Assembly: GCA_943736015.1 (NCBI GenBank)
Contig: OX031065.1
Span: 46,602,992 to 46,666,991 of the forward strand
Source: Tridacna crocea
Lineage: Eukaryota; Mollusca; Bivalvia; Cardiida; Cardiidae
Direction of reading: 5' to 3'
Length of the DNA stretch: 64,000 nucleotides
The position numbers and the translations under genes are program-made. Shown here piece by piece: positions 426 to 63,639 of the stretch. Numbering within the stretch: the first letter of the stretch is position 1; each line of letters begins with the position of its first letter. The notes below the pieces were generated by a model. That model searched no databases. It was not told the DNA's origin and was given only the letters and a program-made list of their open reading frames with translations.

Positions 426-589
426 AAAAAAAAAATCCGTATGGTAAATATACTTTTATATCTTCCTGTAAAAATGAGCTGGAACACCTACATTTGCTTG
501 TTTGTATTGGAGTTTAACGTTGCTTTAACAGCTTAGGTAATATCAAAGTGTCAAATGCACACATTCATTGTGTTTCCTGGCTTTCTCAT

Positions 590-592
590 ACA

Positions 593-626
<34 letters not shown>

Positions 627-940
627 CGGACAGAGAATGAGAGAGAGAGAGACGGACAGAGAGAGAGACATACAGAGAATGAGAGAGAGAGGCGGACAGA
701 GAATGAGAGAGAACAGAGAGACAGAGAGAGACGGACAGAGAATGAGAGAGAGAGAGACGGACACAGAGAGAGACAGACAGAATTTGAGAGAGAGAGAGAG
801 ACTGACAGAGAGAGAAAGAGAGAGAGAGACGGACAGAGAAAGACAGAGATAGGGACAGAGAATGACAGAGACAGACAGGGACAGAGAAAGAGAGAGACGG
901 ACAGAGAATGACAGAGAGAGAGAGAGAGAGAGAGAGAAAT
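590..940. repeat. GAGA/GACAGAGA microsatellite
   Basis: Long imperfect run of GAGAGACGGACAGAGAAT-type units. It creates long Arg/Glu or Ser/Leu ORFs on both strands that are not genes. Confidence 0.9.
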
Positions 941-991
941 CTAGAACCACAGCTAGGGGCAGGGGCAGGGCTTTTAAAAATATCGTTTTAA

Positions 992-1212
992 CTCTTTACC
1001 AAACAACAAAATTTTAGACTGGTCCAAATTGAAAGCACTTGCAGACGACAAAATGAATGTAACTCAAAAATTGAAATGTGTTTTCATCAGGGTTGAAAAC
1101 ATTGTGGGAAGAGGAGAAAATGCTGGTTACCAGCATTTTCTCCTTTTCCCACAATGTTTTCAAAAGGGTTCTATCTCAGGGTCGTAAAAACCAGGGATTG
1201 TTTGGGAAAGGT
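992..1212. mobile_element. TTAA-flanked palindromic MITE, 221 bp
   Basis: Ends CTCTTTACC... and ...GGGAAAGGT between TTAA 988-991 and 1213-1216. Central hairpin GAGAAAATGCTGGTTACCAG / CATTTTCTCC. Same length as the copy whose insertion is proven at 35789-36009. Confidence 0.85.
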
Positions 1213-1458
1213 TTAAAACATCGTGCAAAAAAGAAAAAAATACTACTTTCTTAGGTTTCAATTGCCTTTTTTCCTACAGACATTTTCCTTTTCCCGCAAT
1301 GAGTGCTTGTTTTTTTAAAGAAAGTACTATTACATGACAATTTTTGTTAATGAAGTGTTCTTTTACAAGAAGAAATATGAAGAAAGGAGCTACTGAAAGA
1401 AGTTTTTTTTTTCATCGATATCCGGTATGCACAGTGTTCACTTTTTTTTGTTGTTTAA

Positions 1459-1664
1459 ACCTTAACTAGACAACAAATTTTTAGCCCTTTTCAAATGGAA
1501 AGCATCTGCAGACGACAATTTTCATTCAGCTCAAAAGGTGCACTGTTTATAGATAAGATAGCAACAATGGGTAAAGGAGAAAATGCTGGTTACCAGCATT
1601 TTCTCCTTTTCCCACAATGCTTGCTTCTAAGGGTCGTCAAAAGTCGTCATTGTGTGGCAAAGGT
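1459..1664. mobile_element. TTAA-flanked palindromic MITE
   Basis: Flanked by TTAA 1455-1458 and 1665-1668, with the standard central hairpin around 1577-1618. Slightly shortened. Confidence 0.8.
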
Positions 1665-1669
1665 TTAAA

Positions 1670-8567: not shown

Positions 8568-8998
8568 ATGTATCTTAGAATATAGATAAACGCCTGTGCT
8601 TGAGATTAAAAATCTTACATTTTGCGGCCCATCATGTATGCTTTGCACCCCTTTACTGTGGACCAGTCGATCGTTCAAAGAACAATCATTTTCCTTAACC
8701 CTCAGACCTTCTCATAGTCAGCATAAATATAGCTTATTTATTTCAATGGGAACGTAGTATCGAACACAAGAAACGTATATACATATGGGATATATACTTA
8801 TTATCTCTTGCTAGGTGGCATTCTACAAATACACGTAGATCTATTAATTTGGGCATCTTGGGTAAAGAACCGGACTACTTTTCTATGCGACAACCATTAC
8901 TTTTAATTTCAAACTAAAATAAACGTTTACTCAATAAAACGCAACGTGGTTCGATTCATTCAGCTATGGTCAGCAGTTTAGAGAAATCTGGAACTTAA

Positions 8999-9221
8999 CC
9001 CGTTACCACACAATCCCTACTTTTGACGCCCCTGAAAAAGAAGCCTTTTGAAAACACTATGGGAAAAGGAGAAAATGCTCTGGTAACCAGTATTTTCTCC
9101 CTTTCCCATAGTGTTTTCTATCCTTCCCAGAACAAATTTCTATTTTTTAGTCACATTTATTTTGTCGTCTGCAATTGCTTTCAATTTGGACCAGTCTAAA
9201 ATTTTCTCGTGTGGTAAAGGG
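8999..9221. mobile_element. TTAA-flanked palindromic MITE, 223 bp
   Basis: TTAA 8995-8998 and 9222-9225. The hairpin arms carry the private variant CACTATGGG / CCCATAGTG on both sides. Confidence 0.85.
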
Positions 9222-9225
9222 TTAA

Positions 9226-10383: not shown

Positions 10384-10489
10384 TTAAATGGATTAGCACA
10401 TCAGCACATTAGCACAAAGGGTGTGTTGGTAAACTGTTAATTTGATAGGAAATGTGTTTGATTGCAAAGCAAGTTACCGCTCTAATCAA

Positions 10490-12391
10490 TAATGGTCTTA
10501 GTATCCTTCTCTAAATATGGTCTGCAGAAGATGATGGATATATGTTTTAATTATTCTGTAAAGTGGCGTTACATGTATAACCCATCCAAGTGTGCAGTTA
10601 TAGTCTTTAATGAACCCAAACATTTTATAGCTAATCGTTTATGGCGATTGGGCGATAGCGTTGTAAATGAAGTAGTGGATTACACTCACTTGGGCATAAT
10701 TTGTAATAAGTTCATGAAAAGTTCTGTCAGCATTGATGATTCCTGTCACAAGCTGAAATCTACTCTTTTAGGTTTATTAAATGTTGGAGTGCATGAAAAT
10801 GGTCTTCGTCCATTTACGTCCCTTAAACTGTACAAGTCTATTGTTCTACCAAAAGCACGCTATGGCTGTGAGCTGTGGTCAGAAATTAACAAAACGCAGT
10901 CAGCTCAGCTGGAAAGAGCACATAGATTCTGCGTCAAGTATATTCAGAATTTACCGGTGTATACTAAAACCGATGTTTGTCTCGGTCTAGCCGGTGTTTT
11001 ACCTATCGAATCTGATATCGATTATAGGAAACTTTTGTTTCTGGGCCAAAGTCGTGCCCCGAGTCTACACGCATGTAAAAAGTTGTTTAATTATAGGCTC
11101 TTTTCTTTTTTTATAAGTGGTAATTCCTTGAAGCTTGGGTTTATCCCAGATATTGTACGTATTTTACGCAAGTATTCGCTGGAAGATTACTGACAGCGTT
11201 ACTTGGCCACAGGTCTTTTTCCTACAAAAGTTCAATGGAAGAGAATTTCTCGTAATGTCATCAACGGACAAGCAAATACTACTTGGATAACCAGGGTTCA
11301 GACCGACAGTCATCTATCAAGTTTCTTATACATAAAACCACAATTACTTCTCCATAGTGAACTATGGGAATTAAGTAGGTCTATCTCCTCTCGAGTGATA
11401 GCCAAGCACTGCAACAATTGTGTTAAGATGATAGCTAAATTTTATAGCGACTCATTTACAAAATTCTGTCATTACTGCAAAAATCATTTTTCAGTATCGT
11501 TATGTGAACACGTTTTATTACAATGTCCTTCTACAGTGAGTTTGAGGATTGAATTATTTCATCGTATCTCAATGGAGACAAATGAATGCACCTATCAGAG
11601 GTTTAGAAGCCTGAGTAATAACGGTATTGTTGTAGCCTTATTCTCAGGTCTTCGAAACATATTGGAGGATAATGTTATTAACCATAGGCTCTTGCTAGTT
11701 ATTATACCTATCCTTGGAAAATTTTGGAATTTTTTCTTTGTGTAATAGCTCTATGATCTATGCACCACAGAGTTAATATATTATCTTAACTTCTTCAGCC
11801 CCATGCCCAACCAGCTGTGACATACATGTATCTGTTTTTGTTTTTTGCCTCTGTTGCCTCGATACAATACTGTATATTATTATTTATCTGCCGCTAACTC
11901 CAGCCAGCAATTTCTAGTCGATTGATTGAATGATTGTCCGGTTAATTCTTCTATAGATCTATCCGCTCATTCATTCAATCAATGGACTTATTCTAGGGGT
12001 CTGCTTCATTATTTAGTTCCTAAGTATTGTGTTGTTTTCCTAAATATTCTGTTGTCTGTGTTTGCCTTGTGTTTCGCTTTCGTTGCAAGGTCCCCTTACT
12101 TGATTCATGCTTTCCTTTTACCTATTTTTGTCTCGTTTCTCTTCTTTATTTTGTACTTTGAGTTTTAAGAATGTGCTCCCGCATTCTGACCAGGGAAAGG
12201 GCTTTTGCATTTTCGTCTTTTTATTGTAAGGGTCTTTTTCGGGTCGGAGTCTGGCCGTACATTGATTTTCTCTCTTTATGACATTTACCTACTTTCTTTT
12301 GTTTGTTATTTCATTCTTACTGTTTTCTTGTATTTTATTGTAAAATGCTCGCCATTTTGGCGGAAAAACAATAAAATAATAATAATAATCA
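10490..12391 (+). mobile_element. 5'-truncated non-LTR retrotransposon, near-intact RT C-terminus
   Basis: The open frame begins in the RT active-site block (MVLVS) and continues NPSKCAVIVFN, GCELWSEINKTQ, RAHRFCVKYIQNLP and IDYRKLLFLGQ. One in-frame TGA (11191-11193, probably from TGG) separates it from the same-frame continuation, which holds a Cys/His motif, FCHYCKNHF...CEHVLLQCP, and stops at 11745. About 640 bp of 3' UTR follows and ends in a (TAA)n-like tail near 12375-12391. Typical C-terminus of mollusc LINEs; truncated at the YADD box. Confidence 0.75.
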
Positions 12392-19800: not shown

Positions 19801-22339
19801 TTCTTCTTTTTATCCTTTCTACTAGTTTCTAAATCGAGTCCAAAGGGCAGTGAACACATATCAGAGTTTTCAGTATTAAACGTTCTAATAAGAGCATTCC
19901 CAACAACTATCTGCACTTTTCACGGATTTACGATAAATGTTTGTAGACAGACTCCTCAGATTTTTATTTTATATTCATACTCACGCGAAGAAGACGTCCA
20001 TTACACCCGTGCATGCGCAACTCCTCAGATTAAAAGTGTCTGCAGACGACAGATAAAATGTGAACTAAGAATATCCTTCATAGAAGGATAAAAAGAGCGT
20101 GGGAAAAGGAGAAAATGCTGATAGCCAGTACTTTCTCCTTTTCCCACAATGTTTTCAAAAGCCTCTTATCTCAGTCTCGTAAAAACCAGGGATTGTTTGG
20201 TAAAGGGTTAACTGTTACTCCGCCATGGCCAGCATCGGTGAGTTTTAGGATGTTGCGTAGACTATTTAGCCTTCGCTAGATGGTAGTATTTCAGATTGCT
20301 CCATACTGAAAGTAATTCAGATGGCAAATTAATGTGGCTAAAAATTGGAAAATGGATATATTTGTGAAAGGGAGAAAACAATCTAAGAAAAGTACATAAT
20401 TTGACAGACTCTCTTTGTTTCGTCAAGGCCTGCTTTAAACGTGACCCACCTCAGGCACTTTTGTGCCAGGCACAGACAATTGTCAGACTGCAAGTCAAAC
20501 CGTTTTTGATCTCTTGAAGTTTACCGATTAGAATAAGGGGAAGTTACATTTTAATATGAAGAGGTTAAACCAATTACTTACCTTAATAACCCTTGTTGCT
20601 AGTCTACACTGCATCTCACTTAATGGCATAATGGATCCCAACGGTTGAAAACATCCTATGATAGCCAGTGTATTTTTTCCAATATCTGGCGGGTACATGT
20701 ATTTGTAAAGATTCACCTTGTTGTCTTTTACTTCGGTAATGGATTTGTCCAAAAATGGAAATCCGAAAATGTACCCGGTCGCTGTTACCACCGCATCGAT
20801 TTGCTCGAATGTCCCATCCTCAAATACTACGCCAGTCTCAGTAAATTCCCGGATATTCGATTTGACGATCACGTTACCGGAAATAATGCGATTCGGAAGT
20901 TCATCATTGACTGTTGGATGCTGGGATAGCGGGCCGTGGTTGGGTTCCAGTGAGAATTTCTTGTGGTTGAATCGATTGTTGAGTTCCTTCTTCAAATTTC
21001 CTAAAGCACCAGGTACGTTTTCAAAAACAAACTTGTTGAATCGATTATTAAAGTCAGCATCAAACGGCCGGCCTTGTTCAGCCATTCGATTAAAGATCCA
21101 TGCACCTCGTCTTGTGCTGAGAAAAACCTACAATATAAAATGTAGAGAATACATCTGTGCCTGGATACAGACGAAATTCTAACTTTGAACGACATACCAA
21201 AGTTTTAAACAATTAGCTTTCCTTGCGCAAACTTGTCCCACTTGTCTTTAAATTTGTTATTGTAAGCTGTCTCTGTTTTAGCAAATCTATCCATGTATCG
21301 TCCGTTAAATTAAGATTTAAGCGTAAAAAATCGGTCACTTCCATTGAACTTCATGACTGATGTCTTTTTAAAAAAAAAAAAACAAGCTCGAGGTGATAGT
21401 TACCTGTGACGCAATTCGACTCAATTCTACTGTGACGTCACCACCCGAATTTCCAATCCCGACCACAACTACTCGCTTGTCTTCATAGCCCCTATGGTCC
21501 TTATAGTCGTGTGAGTGAACTACCTTGCCTTGAAATTTGTCCATCCCAGCGAACTTCGGTATTTTCTTGTCCGCATGATGACCAGTACAAACGAGTGCAC
21601 CGTCGAAGGTATGAACTTCCACTTTTTTCGATTTTAGGTTTTTCGTTGTCAGAAGCCATCGGCCCGTCTTGCTGTGATCGTCAGCCTTTTCAACTTTTTC
21701 AACCTGTGCAATTTCACAACATTTGATTTTCAGAATTGGAATTAGATAGTTCAAAAATGGAAATTTCAAAAGAAGCCAACGCTTTTCAAGCTTATTCTAA
21801 TACAAACAAATAAACGCGTTTAAGGAACATGCAGAAACAAACGGAAAATGTGAGGAAAATTTCATTTTGCTGAGAACTCTTTCGGTACAGAGCCAGCAAT
21901 TTTTTTCTCATCCTTAATATTTTCGCAACTTCTTCGTTGCATAGGTCATTAAAACATTAAAACACTGAATTAGTTGGTTAACAGGGCTAAATAAACAAAT
22001 CTTTCTTACCTCTGTGTTAAACTGAATATATTTCCGAAGATCGAACTCGTCCGCATACAGGTGAAAGTACTTCTCCACGTATCGATTATGCATGTATATA
22101 GAAAACTCCTTTGGTGCGGGAAAATCGCTGTAACTTGTCATTTCCTTGGATGTGTTTATAACAGTCGATTTCATGACACAAGCCTGACCTTCCTCCACTT
22201 CTGGGGTATAATGCCATAGTCCTCCAATATAGTCTGTCCGCTCGAAACAGACCGGCAGAAGCCCTTCATCCAAACAGCATTTGATAGCAGGAAGCCCACT
22301 CGCCCCAGCTCCAATAACGGCCACGGTTTTGGGAGACAT
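13620..22339 (-). CDS. FMO: FMO-A: flavin-containing monooxygenase, intact five-exon gene
   Basis: Coding exons (minus): 22339-22010, 21703-21404, 21127-20582, 16095-15930, 13867-13620; 1590 nt, 529 aa plus stop. All junctions are GT-AG and phases are 0,0,0,1, so the spliced frame stays open. Family knowledge: FMOs use FAD, NADPH and O2 to oxygenate N- and S-nucleophiles at the ER membrane. Seen in the sequence: FAD motif GAGASG at residues 10-15, E33/GGLW 39-42, FMO signature F167-x-G169-x3-H173-S-x2-Y177, NADP motif GIGNSGGD 192-199, ATGY 326-329, and a hydrophobic C-terminal tail like the membrane anchor of vertebrate FMOs. Length matches the usual ~530 aa. The start ATG at 22339 puts the FAD motif at the normal distance. 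Intron 3 is swollen by a LINE. The substrate cannot be told from sequence. Confidence 0.93.
14241..14988. repeat. Tandem duplication of a ~143-bp unit, second copy interrupted
   Basis: Unit 1 is 14241-14383. Unit 2 starts at 14384, is broken at 14423 by the fold-back, and resumes at 14875 to about 14988. Both contain GAATATTCGTA(A/T)TTGTAG. Confidence 0.7.
14424..14874. mobile_element. 451-bp fold-back element with TTAGTA target duplication
   Basis: Two ~215-bp arms (14424-14640, 14659-14874) are nearly perfect inverted copies with an ~18-bp spacer. The ends are CACGGCGGGGAATCACGTGA and its complement. TTAGTA flanks both ends (14418-14423, 14875-14880). The neighbouring tandem copy of the host sequence at 14241-14383 has a single TTAGTA with no insert, which proves the boundaries. 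No coding capacity. Confidence 0.85.
14989..15929. other. FMO-A intron 4 remainder, nothing recognised
   Basis: AT-rich intronic DNA; ORF 14981-15262 has no motif. Confidence 0.5.
15930..16095 (-). CDS. FMO: FMO-A exon 4
   Basis: 166 nt, in phase 0, out phase 1. Encodes GDVTLP, then [20 protein letters not shown] and CKPNL, matching the FMO segment with S-x-R-H-T-I-Q before the C-terminal domain. Acceptor aaacag/GGA, donor TTAG/gtaac. Confidence 0.9.
16204..16282. repeat. Near-perfect palindrome at LINE 3' boundary
   Basis: Arms of ~34 bp (CTTCAAAAACCTCGTAACTA and complement) around an 8-bp loop at ~16239-16246. The LINE similarity stops here. Confidence 0.7.
16260..19600 (-). mobile_element. 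Degenerate non-LTR retrotransposon (CR1-like) in FMO-A intron 3
   Basis: On the minus strand, in order: ORF1 start MAEGGRNDCRKILTLGTQT near 19552; a cysteine-rich PHD-like segment (CDLCPQC ... GLNFCRNCANI, ~19300-19430); a coiled coil plus NLIIFNLPES RNA-binding-like motif (18952-19164); an endonuclease-like start (18191-18406); RT blocks with FGFIYDRSCQLQLLESL (16567-16833), SGVAQGPTLFLIFINDLPE and KLFEDGT (~16440-16560), and a C-terminal NAKKCKILHIG. Frames are broken and the catalytic FADD is FEDG, so it is dead. The 3' end is truncated at a palindrome near 16260. Confidence 0.75.
20040..20207. mobile_element. TTAA MITE, left-truncated, in FMO-A intron 3
   Basis: Hairpin 20103-20149 and right end GGTAAAGGG before TTAA 20208-20211. 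The homologous place in FMO-B (~35449) has TTTAACTGTTACTCC without this element. Confidence 0.7.
20212..20581. repeat. Intron 3 segment shared with FMO-B (35453-36040)
   Basis: CTGTTACTCCGCCATGGCCA through to the exon 3 donor matches FMO-B intron 3 closely. It records the A/B tandem duplication and gives the empty site for the MITE at 35789. Confidence 0.85.
20582..21127 (-). CDS. FMO: FMO-A exon 3 (catalytic core with ATGY)
   Basis: 546 nt, 182 codons, phase 0. It begins [14 protein letters not shown], contains [15 protein letters not shown] and ATGYIFGFPFL, and ends CRLATRVIK before a gtaag donor. This is the exon that is frameshifted in FMO-B. Confidence 0.93.
21404..21703 (-). CDS. FMO: FMO-A exon 2 (FMO signature and NADP motif)
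   Basis: 100 codons, phase 0 at both ends, acceptor gcacag/GTT and donor CAG/gtaac. Carries LVCTGHH, the FMO-identifying motif FQGKVVHSHDY and the NADP-binding GIGNSGGD. The same 300-nt length is kept in all three paralogues. Confidence 0.93.
22010..22339 (-). CDS. FMO: FMO-A exon 1 (FAD-binding N-terminus)
   Basis: 110 codons from ATG (22337-22339) to a GAG/gtaag donor, phase 0. Contains the Rossmann motif GAGASG, the [10 protein letters not shown] segment that contacts FAD, and the conserved [10 protein letters not shown] and YSDFP stretch. It aligns without gaps to exon 1 of FMO-B. Confidence 0.93.
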
Positions 22340-23126: not shown

Positions 23127-23130
23127 TTAA

Positions 23131-23350
23131 CCCTTTCCCAAACGACAAATTTTGGCTTCTTCCAAACCGAAAGAGTTTGCAGGCGACAAATTTAGATTTT
23201 GAGAAAATGTCAGAAAGTTCTCAAAAAGGATAGAAAACAATGTGGGAAAAGGAGAAATTGCTCGTTAAGAGCAATTTCTTCTTTTCCCACAGTGTTTTCA
23301 AAGGACTTTTACTGCAGACACGTAAAAACAAGGGCTTGTTTGGGAAAGGG
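23131..23350. mobile_element. TTAA-flanked MITE, 220 bp
   Basis: TTAA 23127-23130 and 23351-23354; hairpin GAGAAATTGCTCGTTAAGAG / GCAATTTCTTC is a variant core. Confidence 0.85.
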
Positions 23351-23393
23351 TTAAATGATAACCTGAAGAATGTCAATCTGTTTTCAACTTTTA

Positions 23394-26232: not shown

Positions 26233-26252
26233 ATTGAATTTTCTGCATTTAA

Positions 26253-26468
26253 CCCTTTACCCCATAAGGCATTTTTATGGTATCTCTAATTGACCCTAAA
26301 TAACAGCAAGGATGAAGCCGTTTCTTATGTGTATATGACACCTTTTGATAGCATAGAAAACATTGTGACAAAAGGTGAAATTGCACGAGCAATTTCACCT
26401 TTTGTCACAATGTTTTCAAAAGTCTCCTACAAGCAGTGTGTAGAAATGAGTCTCTATGGAGTAAAGGG
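26253..26468. mobile_element. TTAA-flanked MITE, subfamily 2
   Basis: TTAA 26249-26252 and 26469-26472. Core GTGACAAAAGGTGAAATTGC / CACCTTTTGTCAC with flank GGATGAAGCCGTTTC. Its sister copy is 40076-40296 (reverse orientation). Confidence 0.85.
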
Positions 26469-26472
26469 TTAA

Positions 26473-29933: not shown

Positions 29934-29975
29934 TATTTAAAAGTTTCACAGAAGGTTTTGGTCTTCATTTATTAA

Positions 29976-30194
29976 CCCTTTCCCAAACGACAAATTTAAC
30001 CTCTTCCAATTAGAAAGAGTGTGAAGACAAAACTTTTAAATTTGATGAGAATGGCGGAAATTTCTCCAAAAACATAGAAAAAAGTGTGTGAAAAGGAGAA
30101 ATTGCTTGTTATGAGCAATTTCTCCTTTTCCCACATTGTTTTCAAAAGACCTGTTCTCCAGATACGTAAAAACCAGGGCTTGTTTGGGAAAGAG
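29976..30194. mobile_element. TTAA-flanked MITE, 219 bp
   Basis: TTAA 29972-29975 and 30195-30198; hairpin GAGAAATTGCTTGTTATGAG variant. Confidence 0.85.
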
Positions 30195-30904
30195 TTAATA
30201 CGTTTTGTCATAGTTTGCGGCGTTACATGTATGTCCTGTATTCAGGGCAAAATAAAACAAAAGTAACGAAATTACAGTCATGATAATTCTAATAATTAAG
30301 GGACATGGTACGTTCGAATGACAAAAATGTATCCTCGAAGAGCAAACTCGTCTAATTCCAGCACTAGACAATGTATTTCACGACGATTTTTTCTCGCTAT
30401 CGACCGTACACTGCTAACAGAAGCTTTTGCTATATAACGTACACCATCCTCCTATAGACCGTACACCGTAGAGAAAAAACAAAGATGATTTTATCGGAAA
30501 ATGCAGTTTCAAAAAATAAGTCAGGAATTTTTCTAGTTATTCGCCATGATTAACTAGGCTATTTATCATTGATTTCAATATATGACAGATTAATATTTTA
30601 TCAAAAGAAACTTTAAAAGCAGCGTTTTCGTGACAGACAAGAGGAGATTATCAATGGTTAGGGGAGTATTTTTGTTATTCGTAGCTCTTGTGGATGTTTT
30701 CTAACCATTTGCAGTGGCAAGACAGCTACATTAATGTATAAGTAACGACTGTCAAATATACTTACAGTGAATTTTTACTTATTTCAACGAAAACATTGTA
30801 GAAGTACAGACCTTGTACTGCACTGTGTGAAATTTCCCTCGATTGGACAATCGCTATATCCGGTGTACGTTGATATACAGTGTTTACGACTGCCGCTTAA
30901 TTAA

Positions 30905-35196: not shown

Positions 35197-35788
35197 CTAT
35201 ATATAAAATAGCATGTATTAATTTATCTTTCTGGGTAATTTTGTTTAAAACATGAAAGAGACAGTTACTTCTAAGTAAGCTAAACTCCAAACAATAATAA
35301 TTTCTTTTTTACACGAAGCTAAAAACTGAAAATGTATACACGTTTGTGTACTACGCAGTACCTCGCACTGTAGGAAGTTGGAAATTCCCTTCAGCTATAT
35401 ATTACGAATTGGTTTAACAAAATTGAGTGGCTATAGTATTAAGTGCCTTTAACTGTTACTCCGCCATGGCCAGCAACGATGAGTTTAGGATGTTGCGTAG
35501 ACTATTCAACCTTTGCAAGAAGGTAGTATTTCAGATTGCTCCATACTAATAGTAATTCAGATGACAAATTAAGGTGGCTAAAATTGAAAAATGGATATAT
35601 TTGTAAAAGGGGGAAAACAATCTAGAAAAAGTACATGACAGACTCTCTTCGTTTCGTCAATGCCTGCTTTAAACGTGACCCATCTCAGACACTTTTGTAT
35701 CAGGCACAGATAACTGTCTGACTGCAAGTCAAACAATTTTTGATCTCTTGAAGTTTACCGATTAGAATAAGGGGAAGTAACATTTTAA

Positions 35789-36009
35789 CTCTTTACCACA
35801 CAATTCCGACTTTTAACGACCCTGAGAAAGAAGCCTTTTGAAAACATTGTGGGAAAAGGAGAAAATGCTGGTAACCAGCATTTTCTCCTTTTCCCACGAT
35901 TTTTTCTATCCTTCACAAGGCAAATTTCAAATTTTTAGTCACCTTTAATTTGTCGTCTGCAAATGCTTTCAATTTGAACCAGTCTAAAATTTTGTCGTTT
36001 GGTAAAGAG
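35789..36009. mobile_element. TTAA-flanked palindromic MITE, 221 bp, insertion proven by paralogue
   Basis: FMO-A intron 3 reads CATTTTAATATGAAG. FMO-B has the same sequence with 221 bp plus a second TTAA inserted (TTAA 35785-35788 and 36010-36013). Ends CTCTTTACCA / TGGTAAAGAG. This defines the family boundaries. Confidence 0.95.
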
Positions 36010-36040
36010 TTAATATGAAGATGTTAAACCAATTATTTAC

Positions 36041-36578
36041 CTTGATAACCCTTGTTGCTAGTCTACACTGCATCTCACTTAATGGCATAATGGATCCCAA
36101 CGGTTGAAAACATCCTATGATAGCCAGTGTGTGCTTTTTCCGGATACATGTATTTGTAAAGATTCACCCTGTTGTCTTTTACCTCGGTAATGGATTTGTT
36201 CAAAAACGGAAATCCGAAAATGTACCCGGTCGCTGTCACTACAGCATCTACTTGCTCAAAAGTCCCGTCATCAAATACTACACCAGTTTCTGTGAATTCC
36301 CGGATGTCCGGTTTGACGATCACGTTGCCGGAAATGATACGATTCGGAAGTTCGTCATTGACTGTTGGATGCTGGGATAGCGGACTATGACTTGGTTGCA
36401 GCGAAAACTTTTTGTGGTTAAATCTATTGTTAAGTCTTTTCTTCAACTTTGCAGAAGCTCCAGGGATAGTTGTAGCCATAAATCTGTTGAATCTGTTGTT
36501 GAGAGCGATATCGCCAGGCTGACCTTGGTAACCAACACGATTAAAGATCCACGCACCTCGTCTTGTGCTCAGGTAAAC
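36041..36578 (-). pseudogene. FMO: FMO-B exon 3 with net 8-bp deletion
   Basis: 538 nt against 546 in FMO-A. Reads [14 protein letters not shown] to ATGYIFGFPFL normally, then changes frame at 36131-36144 and terminates at 36075. Downstream of the lesion the original frame still matches FMO-A up to the gtaaat donor, so the rest of the exon is preserved DNA. Confidence 0.85.
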
Positions 36579-36846
36579 CTTGACAGAAGATAAATGCACG
36601 AAATGTTTCTCTTTGTAGTAACAAATGAAAAGAGCGTTAAATAAAACTCTAAATTTAAAGATACAGTAACTGCAAAGCTGACCTCTTTTGGTTTTCAAAC
36701 TTTGCATAATATTGGTTTTAATATACATACAACTCTTCCATTCTTCAAGAAAATGAGATAATTAAGAGAGTGTGTGTGTGTGGTTTTTTTTTTTAAGATT
36801 CAATGGATGAATTAAATTTGACATTTTTACCCCGGCATATTGTTAC

Positions 36847-40043: not shown

Positions 40044-40370
40044 TTAGCTCAGTGGTTATGATATTGGTCTTTTAACCCTTTACTCCATAGATACTCATTT
40101 CTACGAATCGCTTGTAGGAGCCTTTGGAAAACATTGTGGCAAAAGGTGAAATTGCTCATGACGAGCAATTTCACCTTTTGCCACAATGTTTCCCACACTA
40201 TCAAAAGGTGTCATATACACGTATGAAACGGCTTCATCCTTGCTGTTATTTAGGGTCAAATAGAGATACCATAGAAATGCCTTATGGGGTAAAGGTTTAA
40301 ACCGCGATAAACGATGGTAGTTGTCCTCACGGGTTACGAATCCCGCCAGGTGCGGTTTGTTCTCGTATTT
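40044..40370 (+). mobile_element. tRNA-derived SINE head split by a MITE
   Basis: TTTAGCTCAGTGGTTATGAT (A-box side) lies left of the MITE 40076-40296, and GGGTTACGAATCCCGCC (B-box side) lies right. Joined across one TTAA they form a tRNA-like head. Confidence 0.5.
40076..40296. mobile_element. TTAA-flanked MITE, subfamily 2, 221 bp
   Basis: TTAA 40072-40075 and 40297-40300; core GTGGCAAAAGGTGAAATTGC / CACCTTTTGCCAC. Confidence 0.85.
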
Positions 40371-44720: not shown

Positions 44721-47700
44721 CTGAAAAAGTATATAAAATTATAGTAAACTGCACGGTTCAAAGGTATTTTTAAAAATATGTCTGCGATACAACCAAAATA
44801 GTTAACCCTGTCCCAAACGACAAATTTTATACCAAAATGAGAGCATCCACAGACAACAAATTCAGAATTGGTACAAATTAACTTCAGGTATTTAATAGGG
44901 TAAAAAAATCACACACAGTTGAAAAAGGAGAAATTGTTAGTTACATGCAGTTTCTCCTTTCCCCACAATGTTTTCAAAAGCTTTTTTCTCAGGGCTGTGA
45001 AAACCAGGGAATGTTTTGTAAAGGATTAAAATTTATCTACCTATTTAAAACAAGCGACGGTGTAATCTTTGTTCTGGATCCATTTATGTATCATAAACAT
45101 GTATTATTCGCATTGTTTAATTGTACTGCAAAGAAATTTCTCGAGATCTGATAGGATTATATTGAACGTATATATCATGTACATTGGCAAAAGGCACCAA
45201 GCTGCACGTTTTAGCATTGATTATCAAGGTTTCAGTGACGTCAAATTTAATTGAATTGGGGCACTCAGAAGGGAAATTCTACTTCGTCAGGTTATTCATT
45301 TTTTTAAACAAAAAAAAAAAACACATTCCATCAACAAACGTTTGAATGGTAAAACTTTGCACTATGATAAATTCGTTGTTAGGTAAGGTGGCAGGGGACT
45401 TGGAAACTTGTTCACGGCTGTGATAAATCAGGTCGCCACCAAGCGAAATAGTGACATGATTTAACACAGCCGTGAACAAGTTTCCATGTCCCCTGCCACC
45501 TGACCGTACAACTAATCATATAGAACACAAAATACTTTATTACCATTTGAACTTGAACGCATAAGTTCTTCATTACAAACAATCAAAATTAAACTAAAAT
45601 GAGGAAATAGCGTTACTATGGAAAATGTGTTTTAATTCCTAAAATTATTTACCTAAATTTGTCTTTTTATGTTAGGGTTTTTGTAGAATATGCCAATTCC
45701 ATTAAGAATTTTATTGTTTGTAGAGTTCAAAGTTCTACCAATTTAGAAATGTTAAGTTTTTTTTATGAAAATGGTTTTTTAATGTACATTTCGTTTATTT
45801 CTTTATAAAAAGGCAAACTAAAAGAAAATGAAACTCGTCTTCAATTTCATTCAAATCGCAGAGTGTACATATTCTATTGTTACATTCTATATTTCTATGT
45901 CAATCTGTTGCAATTAATAAATGGTGTGATGTAAGACGTATTTTGGCAATTGCATTTTGATACGTTGGAATGTTAAATTCAACTAGATAAGAGGACAGTT
46001 CAAAGGTATCTTTGATGTTCATATACAAAGTTAAGGATGTGTTATTGTTTATTTCATTGTACCAATTATTAATGTGTTATGTAGATATGATACCCAGTGA
46101 CCTGTTTTCAGAATATGCTAAAAACATGAAGAACATGTATTGCTTTTTCCATTGTGGTATTTTTTATAATCAGGCTTTTTACTATTCAACGATGTCATCT
46201 TTTTAGAAAAGACTAATTAAGAATTTTCTTGGGGATTGTGAAGTAAACTTGCAGCCTAGAGGACACGGAATTTGTGAAAAGTATTGGATTTAACTTTAAG
46301 AGATTTAACATCTGTAAGGTGGAATAACTTTATTTTTGATAATGGTGGCTCATATCTATTTGCAAGTTGAAACTATTGTAAATTGAGGTTTTAGTAATCA
46401 GAAATTTGTAGTGTAAACATTGTTCTTAATGTTGAGGGACGTATTTTATTTCAACATTCTAAGATTAGAATTGACAAAATTTCATTCAACATAACTCCTA
46501 TTGTACTCTTCTGTCTTTGTTTATTAATCAATATTGTTAATTGTTAAAGGTTTGTAGATGGTTTCCTTTCTCGTTAAGATCTCGCTTGGATCGTAACAAA
46601 TGTAATCATCAATTAATCTTCTGCGAAAAAAAGAGCACAAGGCCTTTAGATTTACAGATGAAGGGAAAAACTAAACATCGCAAAAACCGTTCTTTTGTAA
46701 TAACAACTTCACTTTATCGAACCAGCCTTTTGAAATTATGTTCTCAGATGTATGTGCATTTGCTATTGTTTGAAAAATGCAGTTGCATTGTTTTCTGTAA
46801 ACAACTTTACGAAATACTTTATTATTCGAACTTTGATATTTATTCATAAAGGAAATCTTCCGAATTTGCCATACAGTGCCGAATTAAGCGTGGATGATTT
46901 CACGTTGATTAAACGTTTAGGAAATTTTCTGTAAAGTCTTTCAATAAAATCGCTTGTTAAAACCCCAAACTTCGCACGAATAATATATTATAGACGCGAT
47001 AAAGGCGTCGAATAATTCAAGCATAGCTTGTGTTGAAATTTCTTTATTTTGAGTTACGTTGAAAGGGTTATTCATTGCCTGGGTTTCTTTGCTTGTTGGT
47101 GTCTTAATAGCACTTTGGAGACTTCCATTATTTGTCAAGACAAGGCCTGAATAATTAAATGTGTATACTATTTTAATTGGCTCAAATTTGTATAAAAATT
47201 CGAAAGATTCGTTGGCCCTTCTGTTCTTTTGAAATATTTACCACTTTAATTTGCTTACATTAACCGTAAGCTTCCATTTCTCACTATATTTTTCAAACCT
47301 GTTTATCAAACTTTGGGGTCCTTCTGCACTTTCCGATATTAAGACTGAGTCTTCAGCAAACAAGATAAAAAAATATAGTAAGTATAATATTATTAGTATA
47401 AACTAATAATGTACATAGGATTTAAATGTAAACTGTTTTCATTATCTCTTTTACTCTATATATACAGAGTATTCTAGAAACATAAAGAACATTCATTTGG
47501 GCCTTCCATTGTAGTTATTTTTAGAAACAGGTTGTTAGTAAACAAGTTTACCAATCCATGTTGTCATCTTTCTAGAGAGGACTAATCAAGAATTTTCCAA
47601 GTTGATATAAATAGGAGTGACTTACTTACTTGGTTTGAATTTTGAAGTTAAAGGTGGGCATTTAGATTATTCACATCACACCAAATTAACCCATTAGCAC

Positions 47701-50700
47701 ACAATCCCTACTTTTGACGCCCCTGAGAAAGAAGCCTTTTGAAAACACTATGGGAAAAGGAGAAAATGCTGGTAACCAGCATTTTCTCCTTTTCTCACAC
47801 TGTTTTCTACCCTTCCCAGAACAAACTTCTATTTTTTAGTCACCTTCATTTTGTCGTCTGCAAATGCTTTCGATTTGGACCAGTCCGAAATTTTCTTGTG
47901 TGGTAAAGGGTTAAAAGATACAGTATATATATATATCCCTGAAATTTATACGTAGCCTCTTAAGCTATTTTTAGATTTCGCGCCAAAAATAAAAAATAGC
48001 ATCGTGGGAATGTCAAGTGACTGTCACGTGACAAATGATGCTTGAATTCCATAACGTAACAACTATGTTATCATTTTCCATAATGTCTTCTTCGTATGCT
48101 ATGTTTGAAGCTTTGTCTCTTATTTTCGATTTCCGATATGTAAATGAGCGAGTTTCTCATGTAAAAATAGACCATGTTTCCCGTCGGTGTTGACCTGGGC
48201 TATAGTAAATCTCTATTTCTCGGATGGTTTTCGAAAACTGGGGTTTTATTTATGAAAATAATAAGGCTTTGGGAGTATAAAATGATGATTTTTTTTTTCG
48301 TCTTTTTGTAAAATTTTCGTCCCAAAATCTGAAGGGCCACCTTAAGATTTGTGGCTATGGGGATACGGAATTAGTGAAAAGTGTTGGATTTAAATTGGAA
48401 TATAGATCTGTAAGTTGGTATAATTTATTTATTACATAAAGGTTGCTGATATCTATTTGCAAATTAAAACTATTGTTAATTCCGGTTTTTGGAACCAGAA
48501 AGTTTATACTTGTGTGGTCTAGACATAAATCTTAATTTTGAGGGACTTTTTCTGTTTCTTGATTTAAGATAAAATTTCATTCAAACTTAACTCTTATTGT
48601 ACTCTTTTTTCTTAATTCATTGATAAATATTGTTAATTATTGCTGGTTTTCTTTCTCTTTACGCTTGTTCCTTAACATTATGCAATACGATTGGTTGTAG
48701 GTCTCTATATTCAATATGCTATTCTGATTCAGGGTGGTTTTAAATAATGAATTCACTCCATCATTCATTCGTCCATCCAGCAATTCTTCCACTCATTTGT
48801 TCTTACAATAATTTCCATTCATATGTCAGGTTTTAACTTCCATTAGTATTTTCGTTCCTTTAGCTACCTATTATTGTCCTACATTTTAATTTCTACCTTC
48901 ATTAAATGATTCATCTAATCATCCATTTATCCTTTTACGTTGAAAGAGAAACAAAAGTCTTACGCAGGTTTGGCTTGCATCCTGTCAGTTCTGCCAATTC
49001 GTCCATATAAGGTATGTAGTCTACTTGTATCGTGTGACGTGTAGATTGGACGTACCGTAGAGACATCAGCTGTTGTTTTAAATGTATGTCCGTCCACATG
49101 TCCGTTTTACTGGGTAGCATCACGTCTCCCTACATATAATTATTTAAAAAACAGTATTTAAAAACTACAGGAATCGAGCCCTATTAAACTTACTCTAGTG
49201 GGATTGCCCTTTACTAGAAAATTCTGACTTTTAACAACTTTGGGGAAAAAACACATTTTCCCAAACAACAAAGTTTTAGCCTGGCCCAAATTGGATTCAG
49301 AACATAAGATTTGTCTGTCAAACGGTAGAAAACATTGCGGGAAAATAAAAAGAAATGCTGGTTACCATCATTTTATTCTGTTTCTAAAATTATTTTCAAA
49401 AGACCGCTGCCTCAGGTTCGTTACAACCCGGGATTGTTTGAGTAAAAGTTAAGATCCCTGTGGGAAAACGACAAAAGGATGGAGGCCAGCATTTTCTGCT
49501 TTTTACCATATTTTTTTTTCAAAAGCCTTCGCTATAAGGGTCAACAAAACTGAGGATTGTGTGGTAAAGGGTTAAAAGATATTTAACAGCTTAGCATTTA
49601 ACCCATTACCACACAATCCCTACTTTTGACGCCCCTGAGAAAGAAGCCTTTAGAAAACATTGTGGGAAAAGGAGAAAATGCTGGTAACCAGCATTTTCTC
49701 CTTTTCCCACAATGTTTTCTATCCTTCACAAAATAAATTTCAAATTTTCAGTCACTTTTATTTTGTCGTCTGCAAATGCTTTCAATTTGGACCAGACTAA
49801 AATATTGTCGTTTGGTAATGAGTTTATATAATGTTAAGCTTACCAGTGAATTTGTGGGGAAAAGAGCACTACATTGCAATAAACAGTTTCTCCATTCTCG
49901 TACGACGTTCCGTTAATAATAGTCAAGTTTTCTTTTTTCCTAGTTTTTTGCTGTAAATCATCCGGTCGCATAGTTATATTGTTTCAACGGTATCATGTGA
50001 GCTCGTTTGTTTTAGTGGTGTTTTACTACGCTTTCAACATTATTTCAGTAACACCACGGCGACAGCTCACATATTTATATAAGTCCTAGTTTCCACCAGC
50101 ACCAGACTAGAGCTTTGAAGCGTCTTGTCCAATGACACTTCCACGAAAAGCCCAAAGACTTCGATGAGGTTCAAACCTGAGACTTCCAGGTTACGAGCTG
50201 TATATCTTAAGCCTAAGCCATGCAGGACCCCTACTACTGAATTATAATATGAGCCATATTCTTTGAAAAGTGGGCACAATACATCTGCCAAAAGTATCAG
50301 CCCACGTCAACCTGGACCAAAACTTTTCGCTATTTATCAATTTTCTGTATGTCAGAGGACAGTCTACCTTATGAATCACCCAGTTTATAGACAAAAGTTG
50401 TTTTTTTTTTTTAACTTTTCGCTATTTATCAATTTTCTGTATGTCAGCGAACCAGTCTACTTTATGATTTATTCGGTCGATAGACAAAGTTGCTTTTTTA
50501 ATTTTTTGCTATTGATCAATTTTCTGTATGTCAAAGGACCAATCTATAGAGTTTATTTCATCAGCTTGTGGTTAATATGGGGAAATATTTGCTGAAAAAG
50601 GGAAAGGTATGCGAAAATAACGAGTGCCGTAAGGCACGAGTTATTTTCGCGGACCTTTCCCTTTTGATACTTTCCGATCGTGGGTGATTTTCTGTTTCAC

Positions 50701-62816: not shown

Positions 62817-63305
62817 TCAGACAAAAAATAGGAATAAAAAAGTCAGTGTTAGTGACATCAGGACGTATTCTAACATGACCGAGGTACTCCCATTACAGAC
62901 CCCTATCACAAGTGTCGTGGTGCCGGTTCTCGGGGGAAGTCCGCTATCTGCTGCCTCGATCGTCAGTGCATATGCACTGGTTATTGTGCTGTTTAGTATA
63001 CTTCCGGCGGAAACGGAAATGACGCCACTGATTTGGTTGATAGCAAAGTCTCCATCTTCGTTGCCATCTAGAAGAATGAGAAAAAAGTAATTACAAATTC
63101 AAAAACTTAAAATTTAAAAGTTAATCAAAGTCAAAATAGATGAATATTACAAATTCTTTTTTTTTTTTAATATAAGAGAGAGACAGAGAGACAGAGAGAC
63201 AGAGAGACAGACAGACAGACAGACAGAGATACGTACCTGTGATAGTATATTTGATATCAGTGGTCAAATCCGGGTCAATAGCCTGCAGTATAGTCACTAT
63301 TTCAC
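62817..63305 (-). CDS. Cadherin-repeat protein, last two exons (5' part beyond the window)
   Basis: Two minus-strand exons, 63305-63237 (69 nt) and 63067-62817 (251 nt, with stop), join through a split GAT codon with gtacg donor and ttctag acceptor. Joined they read ILQAIDPDL, YTITDGNEDGDFAINQISG, then DSGLPPRTGTTTLVIGV: the A-x-D-x-D calcium motif, the G-x-F-x-I core and the D-x-G-x-P motif of a cadherin repeat. After this repeat the protein ends in a serine/glycine stretch and ~20 hydrophobic residues (MLEYVLMSLTLTFLFLFFV) directly before TGA, with no cytoplasmic domain. That suggests a GPI-anchor signal or a bare membrane anchor. Cadherins mediate calcium-dependent adhesion. Upstream exons must lie past 64000; none is seen in 63306-64000. 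Confidence 0.72.
63171..63232. repeat. (GACAGA)n microsatellite
   Basis: GAGACAGA/GACA run immediately next to the cadherin exon donor at 63236. Confidence 0.9.
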
Positions 63306-63354
63306 CTGGAATAAACAATCTCAATACATTTAACCATTTAATTGTTTCGCCGCT

Positions 63355-63580
63355 TACCCCATTCCCAAACGGCAAATTTTGGACCAGACCAAATTGAAAG
63401 CATTTTGCAGATGGCAAATTAACAGTTGCTAAAAATATGATTTATCTATATGATAGGGTAGAAAACATTGTGGGAAAAGGAGAAAATGCTGGTTACCAGC
63501 ATTTTCTCCTTTTCCCACAATGTTTTCAAAATGTTTCTATTTTCCTGACCCGTAAAAAACAAGTATTGTTTTGAAAAGGG
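63355..63580. mobile_element. TTAA MITE, left end eroded
   Basis: CCCATTCCCAAACGGCAAA, perfect hairpin 63474-63520, right TTAA 63581-63584. Confidence 0.8.
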
Positions 63581-63639
63581 TTAACTTGTTAAAGAATAGA
63601 AATAAAACTTTCAAGGCGATCGTAAAACCCATGATTTTG

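What the first reader, a model, noticed from the sequence alone, without database searches (positions are those of the whole stretch)
35785..36013. Filled/empty-site pair proves a 221-bp TTAA-targeting MITE family
FMO-A intron 3 has CATTTTAATATGAAG. FMO-B intron 3 has the same flanks with 221 bp inserted and TTAA duplicated. More than twenty further copies share the ends (CYCTTTACC...GGTAAAGRG), a length of 216-223 bp and TTAA flanks. TTAA targeting points to piggyBac-, Kolobok- or Sola3-type transposases (established knowledge). The insertion post-dates the FMO-A/B duplication.
Basis: partly seen in the sequence, partly recalled or inferred. Interest (0 to 1): 0.7.

Follow-up and report, generated by a model that had tools for sequence, protein, structure and literature searches.

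The report
Tiny transposon fills quarter of genome
A 221-letter piece of jumping DNA sits in one gene copy and not in its twin; sampling suggests that its relatives make up roughly a quarter of this genome, and their ends resemble cut-and-paste transposons found in the same genome.

Summary
The filled/empty pair is real: FMO-B has 221 bp plus a duplicated TTAA where FMO-A has one TTAA.

It is a piggyBac-type MITE. Its terminal repeat and, on the left, the next 26 bp resemble full-length piggyBac elements of the same genome: 23/26 for Y2, 18/26 for Y, reached by 0-1 of 2000 shuffles. That motif is the 35-bp repeat at those elements' left ends. The right end matches none of five families beyond the terminal repeat.

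New: (1) scale: 24% of 85 kb drawn at random (bootstrap 18-31%), about 1.5 million pieces, controls zero; (2) end variants are coupled: 363 mixed CTTTCCC/CATTACC copies against 13,272 expected; CATTACC is Y's terminal repeat, CTTTCCC is Y2's, but the subterminal part does not sort by partner; (3) a central 67-bp palindrome, better conserved than the terminal repeats, with paired changes in both arms.

Species, palindrome function and actual mobilisation are unproven. Coral CMITEs are the nearest published parallel seen.

The parts
35785..36013 (+). the MITE copy in the FMO-B intron, with TTAA on both sides (221 bp inside)
   Evidence: FMO-A/FMO-B alignment; profile model 1-229, E 2.8e-71
35785..35788 (.). 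left TTAA of the target-site duplication
36010..36013 (.). right TTAA of the target-site duplication
35789..35797 (+). left terminal repeat CTCTTTACC
   Evidence: inverted repeat I2, 35785-35801 with 35997-36013, 94%
36001..36009 (-). right terminal repeat (CTCTTTACC read on the minus strand)
35798..35823 (+). left subterminal motif; resembles the first unit of the 35-bp repeat at the left end of piggyBac elements Y2 (23/26) and Y (18/26); proposed transposase-binding site (inferred)
35840..35906 (.). central palindrome, 33-bp arms and one central base
   Evidence: conservation; paired changes
35949..35959 (-). 11-bp direct repeat in the right part, copy 1
35991..36001 (-). 11-bp direct repeat in the right part, copy 2 (91%)
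20547..20561 (.). empty site in FMO-A, CATTTTAATATGAAG
988..1216 (-). full-length copy
1455..1668 (-). full-length copy, 206 bp inside
8995..9225 (+). full-length copy
23127..23354 (-). full-length copy with TTAACCCTTTCCC ends
26249..26472 (-). full-length copy of the subfamily with ends TTAACCCTTTACTCCATA; palindrome changed in both arms
29972..30198 (-). full-length copy with CTTTCCC ends
40072..40300 (+). full-length copy of the same subfamily as 26249-26472
44802..45029 (-). full-length copy
47686..47914 (+). full-length copy
49598..49826 (+). nearly full-length copy (model 1-227) with CATTACC ends
63354..63584 (-). full-length copy

Best explanation
It is a non-autonomous, cut-and-paste MITE of the piggyBac superfamily. 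A transposase of the Y group (Y, 7.2 kb; Y2, 6.4 kb; or extinct relatives) recognises the terminal repeat plus one copy of the 35-bp subterminal repeat on the left, cuts the element out and pastes it into TTAA, duplicating the TTAA. The lineage keeps a 67-bp palindromic core and has split into subfamilies whose two ends carry the same terminal variant (CTTTACC, CTTTCCC, CATTACC), as expected if one enzyme must read both ends. Repeated bursts left about 1.5 million pieces. Shown: the TTAA duplication, the shared end sequences, the coupled end variants, the abundance in random samples, the conserved self-complementary core. Inferred: mobilisation in trans by the Y group, the bursts, and that the core matters for transposition.
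For: Clean filled/empty site with TTAA. Left positions 14-39 match Y2 at 23/26 (0 of 2000 shuffles, window copy and consensus) and Y at 18/26 (1 and 0 of 2000); none of the other comparisons, with Y3, X and L017 and with all right ends, is reached by fewer than 256 of 2000. The matched motif is tandemly repeated at the left ends of Y and Y2 (period 35, 3.6 and 3.7 units). Y encodes an intact 492-aa PF13843 protein related to solved piggyBat and piggyBac transposases, in seven copies at 96-100% protein identity, one with two stops and one covering residues 1-452. Matched end pairs 4,952, 14,548 and 11,895, reversed patterns 0; mixed ends 2,690 against 8,535 expected and 363 against 13,272. Random sample 24.3%.
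Against: The MITE's right end matches none of five piggyBac families beyond the terminal repeat, nor the one right end seen among eight further Y-like loci. CTTTACC has no autonomous partner here. The subterminal part does not sort by partner: left ends of all three variants are nearer to Y2 than to Y, CATTACC ones included (0.86 against 0.67), and only 5 of 11 CTTTCCC left ends in the window and random set have Y2's letters at positions 31 and 35. The C9 copy of Y lacks TTAA on its right. Two extra insertion sites do not read TTAA in the empty relatives. Shared ancestry of copies alone couples their ends. No transposition was tested. The window copy begins CTCT, not CC[C/T]T.
Confidence: 0.8

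Rival explanations
1. The MITE is moved by a different piggyBac of this genome, such as the young 2.77-kb family X (ends CCCTTTATATAC), and the likeness to Y and Y2 is only old ancestry.
For: X has near-identical copies (for example 99.9% between L012 and L013) and shares CCCTTTA; piggyBac enzymes may tolerate varied ends (suggested for coral CMITEs, PMC2872659, Discussion read).
Against: Subterminal positions 14-39 of the MITE match X no better than shuffles (256-1259 of 2000 reach it).
Confidence: 0.1
2. The MITE belongs to another TTAA-targeting superfamily (Kolobok or Sola3).
Against: Left terminal and subterminal match to piggyBac elements of the same genome.
Confidence: 0.05
3. The palindrome has no function: it arose at the birth of the MITE and looks conserved because a few source copies seeded all the others.
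For: Within-copy pairing (0.904) is below pairing with the nearest relative (0.920), so nothing maintains it after insertion; the number of pairs with two-sided changes (8) is close to shuffles (mean 5.0, 27 of 500 reach it) and to slid controls (6-9); in the closest pairs arms diverge at 0.62 of the flank rate.
Against: Arms differ from consensus by 7% against 21% elsewhere; 31 two-sided cells against 7.2, 0 of 500 shuffles; subfamilies swap G-C to C-G and A-T to T-A in both arms.
Confidence: 0.4
4. The abundance is overestimated: matches are weak, or the random stretches are unrepresentative.
For: Only 38 stretches; the two samples differ (29.4% and 18.6%), 9 of 38 have none, the window has 9.4%, and coverage falls to 12% at E 1e-40.
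Against: Reversed and dinucleotide-shuffled controls give 0 matches; 22% remains at E 1e-10; exact matched-end pairs of three variants alone sum to 31,395.
Confidence: 0.1

Closest known systems
CMITE families of Acropora corals (PMC2872659; abstract, first part of Results, Discussion and passages read)
   Same: TTAA duplication, ends CCCTTT..., a piggyBac-like element sharing the ends of one family, an internal region more conserved than the terminal repeats, adjoining copies in tandem.
   Different: About 100 bp and an estimated 1,600 copies in A. millepora; the parts read do not describe the 75-base core as a palindrome ('hairpin' occurs 0 times). Here 221 bp, a palindromic core, and about 1.5 million pieces by sampling.
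piggyBac and piggyBat transposons (passages of PMC11707139; PDB matches)
   Same: TTAA; repeated subterminal motifs bound by the transposase; related enzyme (E 9.3e-40 and 3.3e-36).
   Different: Their palindromes are short and near the tips; here the palindrome is 67 bp and central. They encode their own enzyme.
Unclassified DNA elements of the giant clam Tridacna crocea (PMC10858879, section 7 read)
   Same: 2,578,864 elements, 34.9% of the genome, in a library that included MITE-Hunter output: similar scale.
   Different: No sequence or target site is given there, and the species of this window is unknown; a lead only.
Human Alu (recalled)
   Same: Copy number of order one million.
   Different: Alu is a retroelement; this is a cut-and-paste element.

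Membership tests
piggyBac-superfamily MITE | TTAA target-site duplication | tested here: met
   FMO filled/empty site; 50 of 74 full-length copies have TTAA at both ends. Two other sites are not clean.
piggyBac-superfamily MITE | CC[C/T]T at the tips (as given in PMC2872659) | tested here: inconclusive
   Consensus CCCT meets it (left end); the window copy starts CTCT on both sides.
piggyBac-superfamily MITE | Terminal repeat shared with an autonomous piggyBac of the genome | tested here: met
   7-8 of 9 positions with Y and Y2 ends.
piggyBac-superfamily MITE | Subterminal sequence shared at both ends | tested here: not met
   Met on the left (23/26 with Y2), not on the right. Not every MITE must have it; it lowers the claim of a simple internal-deletion origin.
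piggyBac-superfamily MITE | Partner encodes a PF13843 transposase | tested here: met
   Y: E 2.7e-88 over 349 of 349 positions.
piggyBac-superfamily MITE | Short, uniform, high copy, no transposase of its own | tested here: met
   Median 221 bp inside in 74 copies; 24% of random sample. At 221 bp it is too short for a transposase.
piggyBac-superfamily MITE | Mobilised by that transposase | not testable with these tools
   Needs an excision or integration assay.
Kolobok or Sola3 MITE | Ends shared with a Kolobok or Sola3 element | not tested
   No search for these transposases was made.

The most novel reading that the evidence does not exclude
The palindromic core is a selected, portable module: it lets one MITE lineage be taken over by successive piggyBac transposases, changing both ends together each time while keeping the self-complementary middle, and this is how a single lineage could fill about a quarter of a 1-Gb genome. 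MITE success would then depend on an internal structure and not only on its ends.
Probability: 0.2. Interest if true: 0.8.

Novelty: new variant of a known kind. Interest (0 to 1): 0.6.

Why it matters
If the estimate holds, one gene-less cut-and-paste lineage has reached copy numbers comparable to human Alu, far above the 1,600 estimated for the coral CMITEs. The coupled ends give a large natural record of how a MITE's two ends change together, with candidate autonomous elements still present. The conserved core with paired changes makes a question raised for coral CMITEs (does the middle of a MITE matter for transposition?) directly testable.

Tried and rejected
Autonomous partner: family X was set aside on subterminal sequence; Y3 on C1 (ends TTAACCCTATCCTCCAC) is too different; L016 and L017 families have other ends. 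Right-end source: downstream stretches of eight further Y-like loci (L081-L088) were fetched; of these only L081 aligned to a Y or Y2 right end outside MITE-like parts, with an end TTAACCCATTACCCTACAGG that lacks the MITE's right subterminal part. Repair of one palindrome arm by the other after insertion: not supported. A known structured RNA: no Rfam match at the gathering threshold in the window. Whether MITE-like units in the 3' parts of Y and Y2 share an origin: alignment too loose to decide. A clean partner for each end variant: weakened. Species: paper searches by chromosome number, assembly size, chromosome lengths and giant clams did not identify it. Prior reports of this family: searches gave none that I recognised from the listings; TTAACCCTTTACC occurred in one unrelated paper. 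Papers beyond PMC2872659, PMC11707139, PMC10294476, PMC10858879 and PMC11490831 were seen as listings only; PMC10294476, PMC11707139 and PMC11490831 as passages. The held library lacks most subscription papers, and Repbase and Dfam were not searched.

Full report
The observation. FMO-A carries CATTTTAATATGAAG at 20547-20561, the only window match with up to one mismatch. FMO-B has the same flanks with 221 bp and a second TTAA between them (35785-36013). With the insert left out in a script the two align without a break there (score 637; maximum 74.5 in 100 letter shuffles). Flanks: 189 matches, 17 mismatches, 23 gap columns on the left; 117, 3 and 1 on the right. All seven FMO exons tested match Pfam FMO-like. 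The insert starts 27 bp into the intron from the splice donor.

Anatomy. Next to TTAA the element has a 9-bp terminal repeat, then a left subterminal motif, a central 67-bp palindrome (33-bp arms, one central base, 94% complementary in this copy) and a right part with an 11-bp direct repeat. As single-stranded DNA it folds far better than shuffles (z -9.3); the core as RNA gives -47.9 kcal/mol, z -11.8.

Partner. PF13843 gives 118 matches, all on contigs C1-C18; 30 loci were fetched. Two Y copies on C5 and C9 share 7,203 bp at 99.9% with different left flanks, left end TTAACCCATTACC and right end GGTAATGAG; the C5 copy has TTAA on both sides, the C9 copy not on the right. The 492-aa frame is a PF13843 transposase related to piggyBat and piggyBac; seven copies have 96-100% protein identity. 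Y2 on C7 (80% to Y) is 6,376 bp, with TTAACTCTTTCCCACACA at both ends. Both have a 35-bp tandem repeat, 3.6 and 3.7 units, from element position 16-17 at the left end. MITE positions 14-39 match Y2's first unit at 23/26 and Y's at 18/26, reached by 0, 0, 0 and 1 of 2000 shuffles (window copy and consensus); no other comparison is reached by fewer than 256. The shuffles were of single letters in short stretches.

Scale. Thirty-eight stretches at random coordinates (18 of 2.5 kb, 20 of 2 kb; 85 kb) give 24.3% coverage, bootstrap 17.6-31.1%, 121 merged matches in 29 of 38 stretches; scaled up, 1.49 million pieces (1.09-1.90 million), of which about 0.56 million full-length. The two samples give 29.4% and 18.6%. 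Reversed sequence gives 0, five dinucleotide shuffles give 0. Coverage is 22% at E 1e-10 and 12% at 1e-40. Only C1-C18 were sampled; the first sample kept to the first 59 Mb of C1-C9 and the first 34 Mb of C10-C18, the second used approximate contig lengths. Of 14 adjoining pairs listed, 7 overlap by exactly one shared TTAA, as expected if a copy's own TTAA serves as a new target; TTAA occurs 8.1 times per kb in the sample.

End subfamilies. Exact matched-end pairs genome-wide: CTTTACC 4,952, CTTTCCC 14,548, CATTACC 11,895; the reversed pattern gives 0 each time. Mixed ends are scarce: CATTACC/CTTTACC 2,690 against 8,535 under independence, CTTTCCC/CATTACC 363 against 13,272. Among 74 full-length copies the ends agree at position 8 (p 7e-5) and position 11 (p 7e-6), and in the 50 from window and random stretches (p 0.015 and 3.5e-4). 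Position 8 also goes with positions 31 and 35 (74 copies: p 1.3e-7 and 1.4e-5; 50 copies: 3.7e-5 and 9e-4). Relatedness is not removed in these tests. Against a simple matching of subfamily to element: CATTACC has Y's terminal repeat, and 8 of its 12 left ends in the 50-copy set have Y's letters at 31 and 35, but over positions 14-38 these ends are nearer to Y2 (0.86) than to Y (0.67); CTTTCCC has Y2's terminal repeat but only 5 of 11 left ends have Y2's letters at 31 and 35, and by eye the CTTTCCC copies listed usually read ACGGGTC or ACGTGTC, not Y2's ACGACCC. CATTACC copies are the least diverged from their own consensus (median 0.082; CTTTCCC 0.136; CTTTACC 0.175; 12, 6 and 26 copies; 30 of 74 fell in no group; the set includes copies from transposase loci).

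The core. Over 74 copies the arms differ from consensus by 7.1% and 7.5%, the rest by 21%. Mean conservation: arms 0.91 and 0.92, terminal repeats 0.86 and 0.86, subterminal parts 0.77 and 0.77; the TTAA is as conserved (0.93 and 0.91). The arms/flank ratio is 0.62 in the 20 closest disjoint pairs, 0.38-0.47 in bins with flank divergence of 0.10 or more, and 0.19 in the lowest bin (2 pairs). On 45 copies (42 distinct) from window and random stretches, 93.1% of cells pair; 31 cells have changes on both sides against 7.2 shuffled (0 of 500) and 7-12 in slid controls; but the number of such pairs, 8, is reached by 27 of 500 shuffles and lies within the slid range 6-9. Three of the 48 copies listed were left out of that alignment, and two more had been dropped there. 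A separate count on 74 copies gave 52 compensating cells against a mean of 11 and a maximum of 20 in 500 shuffles. Subfamilies swap G-C to C-G and A-T to T-A in both arms. Pairing within a copy (0.904) exceeds that between random copies (0.866) but not that with the nearest relative (0.920), so the pattern fits change in the moving lineages and not repair after insertion.

Reading. piggyBac membership is well supported on the left end and the terminal repeats; the source of the right end is unknown. The direction of the FMO event is open, because piggyBac excision is seamless (recalled) and FMO-C does not align there. The nearest published case seen is the coral CMITE group. A giant clam paper lists 34.9% unclassified DNA elements, which may or may not be the same kind of thing; the species here is unknown.

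Noticed in passing
window 36075-36761 (-): The FMO-B exon next to the insert differs from FMO-A by a 10-bp deletion and a 2-bp insertion that shift its frame after LYKYMYP; FMO-B may be a pseudogene, or the assembly may have slipped.
   Followed up: partly
window 26249-26472 (-) and 40072-40300 (+): A sister subfamily with ends TTAACCCTTTACTCCATA and a different interior keeps the central palindrome, with matching changes in both arms.
   Followed up: partly
L012 868-3632 and relatives L009-L011, L013-L015, L019: A 2.77-kb piggyBac family (X) with ends TTAACCCTTTATATAC and near-identical copies, some 99.9% alike, so probably recently active.
   Followed up: partly
L023 (+), Y element: The piggyBac element Y itself carries several inserted MITE-like copies, one full-length at L023 3597-3826.
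   Followed up: no
window 49257-49826: Several MITE copies and pieces lie side by side, in both orientations.
   Followed up: no
window 543-995: Low-complexity stretch read as arginine/glutamate-rich or serine/leucine-rich frames.
   Followed up: no
window 10486-11745 (+): Two long adjoining frames; the first has no Pfam match at E 0.001.
   Followed up: no
window 62817-63098 (-): A cadherin-domain exon.
   Followed up: no
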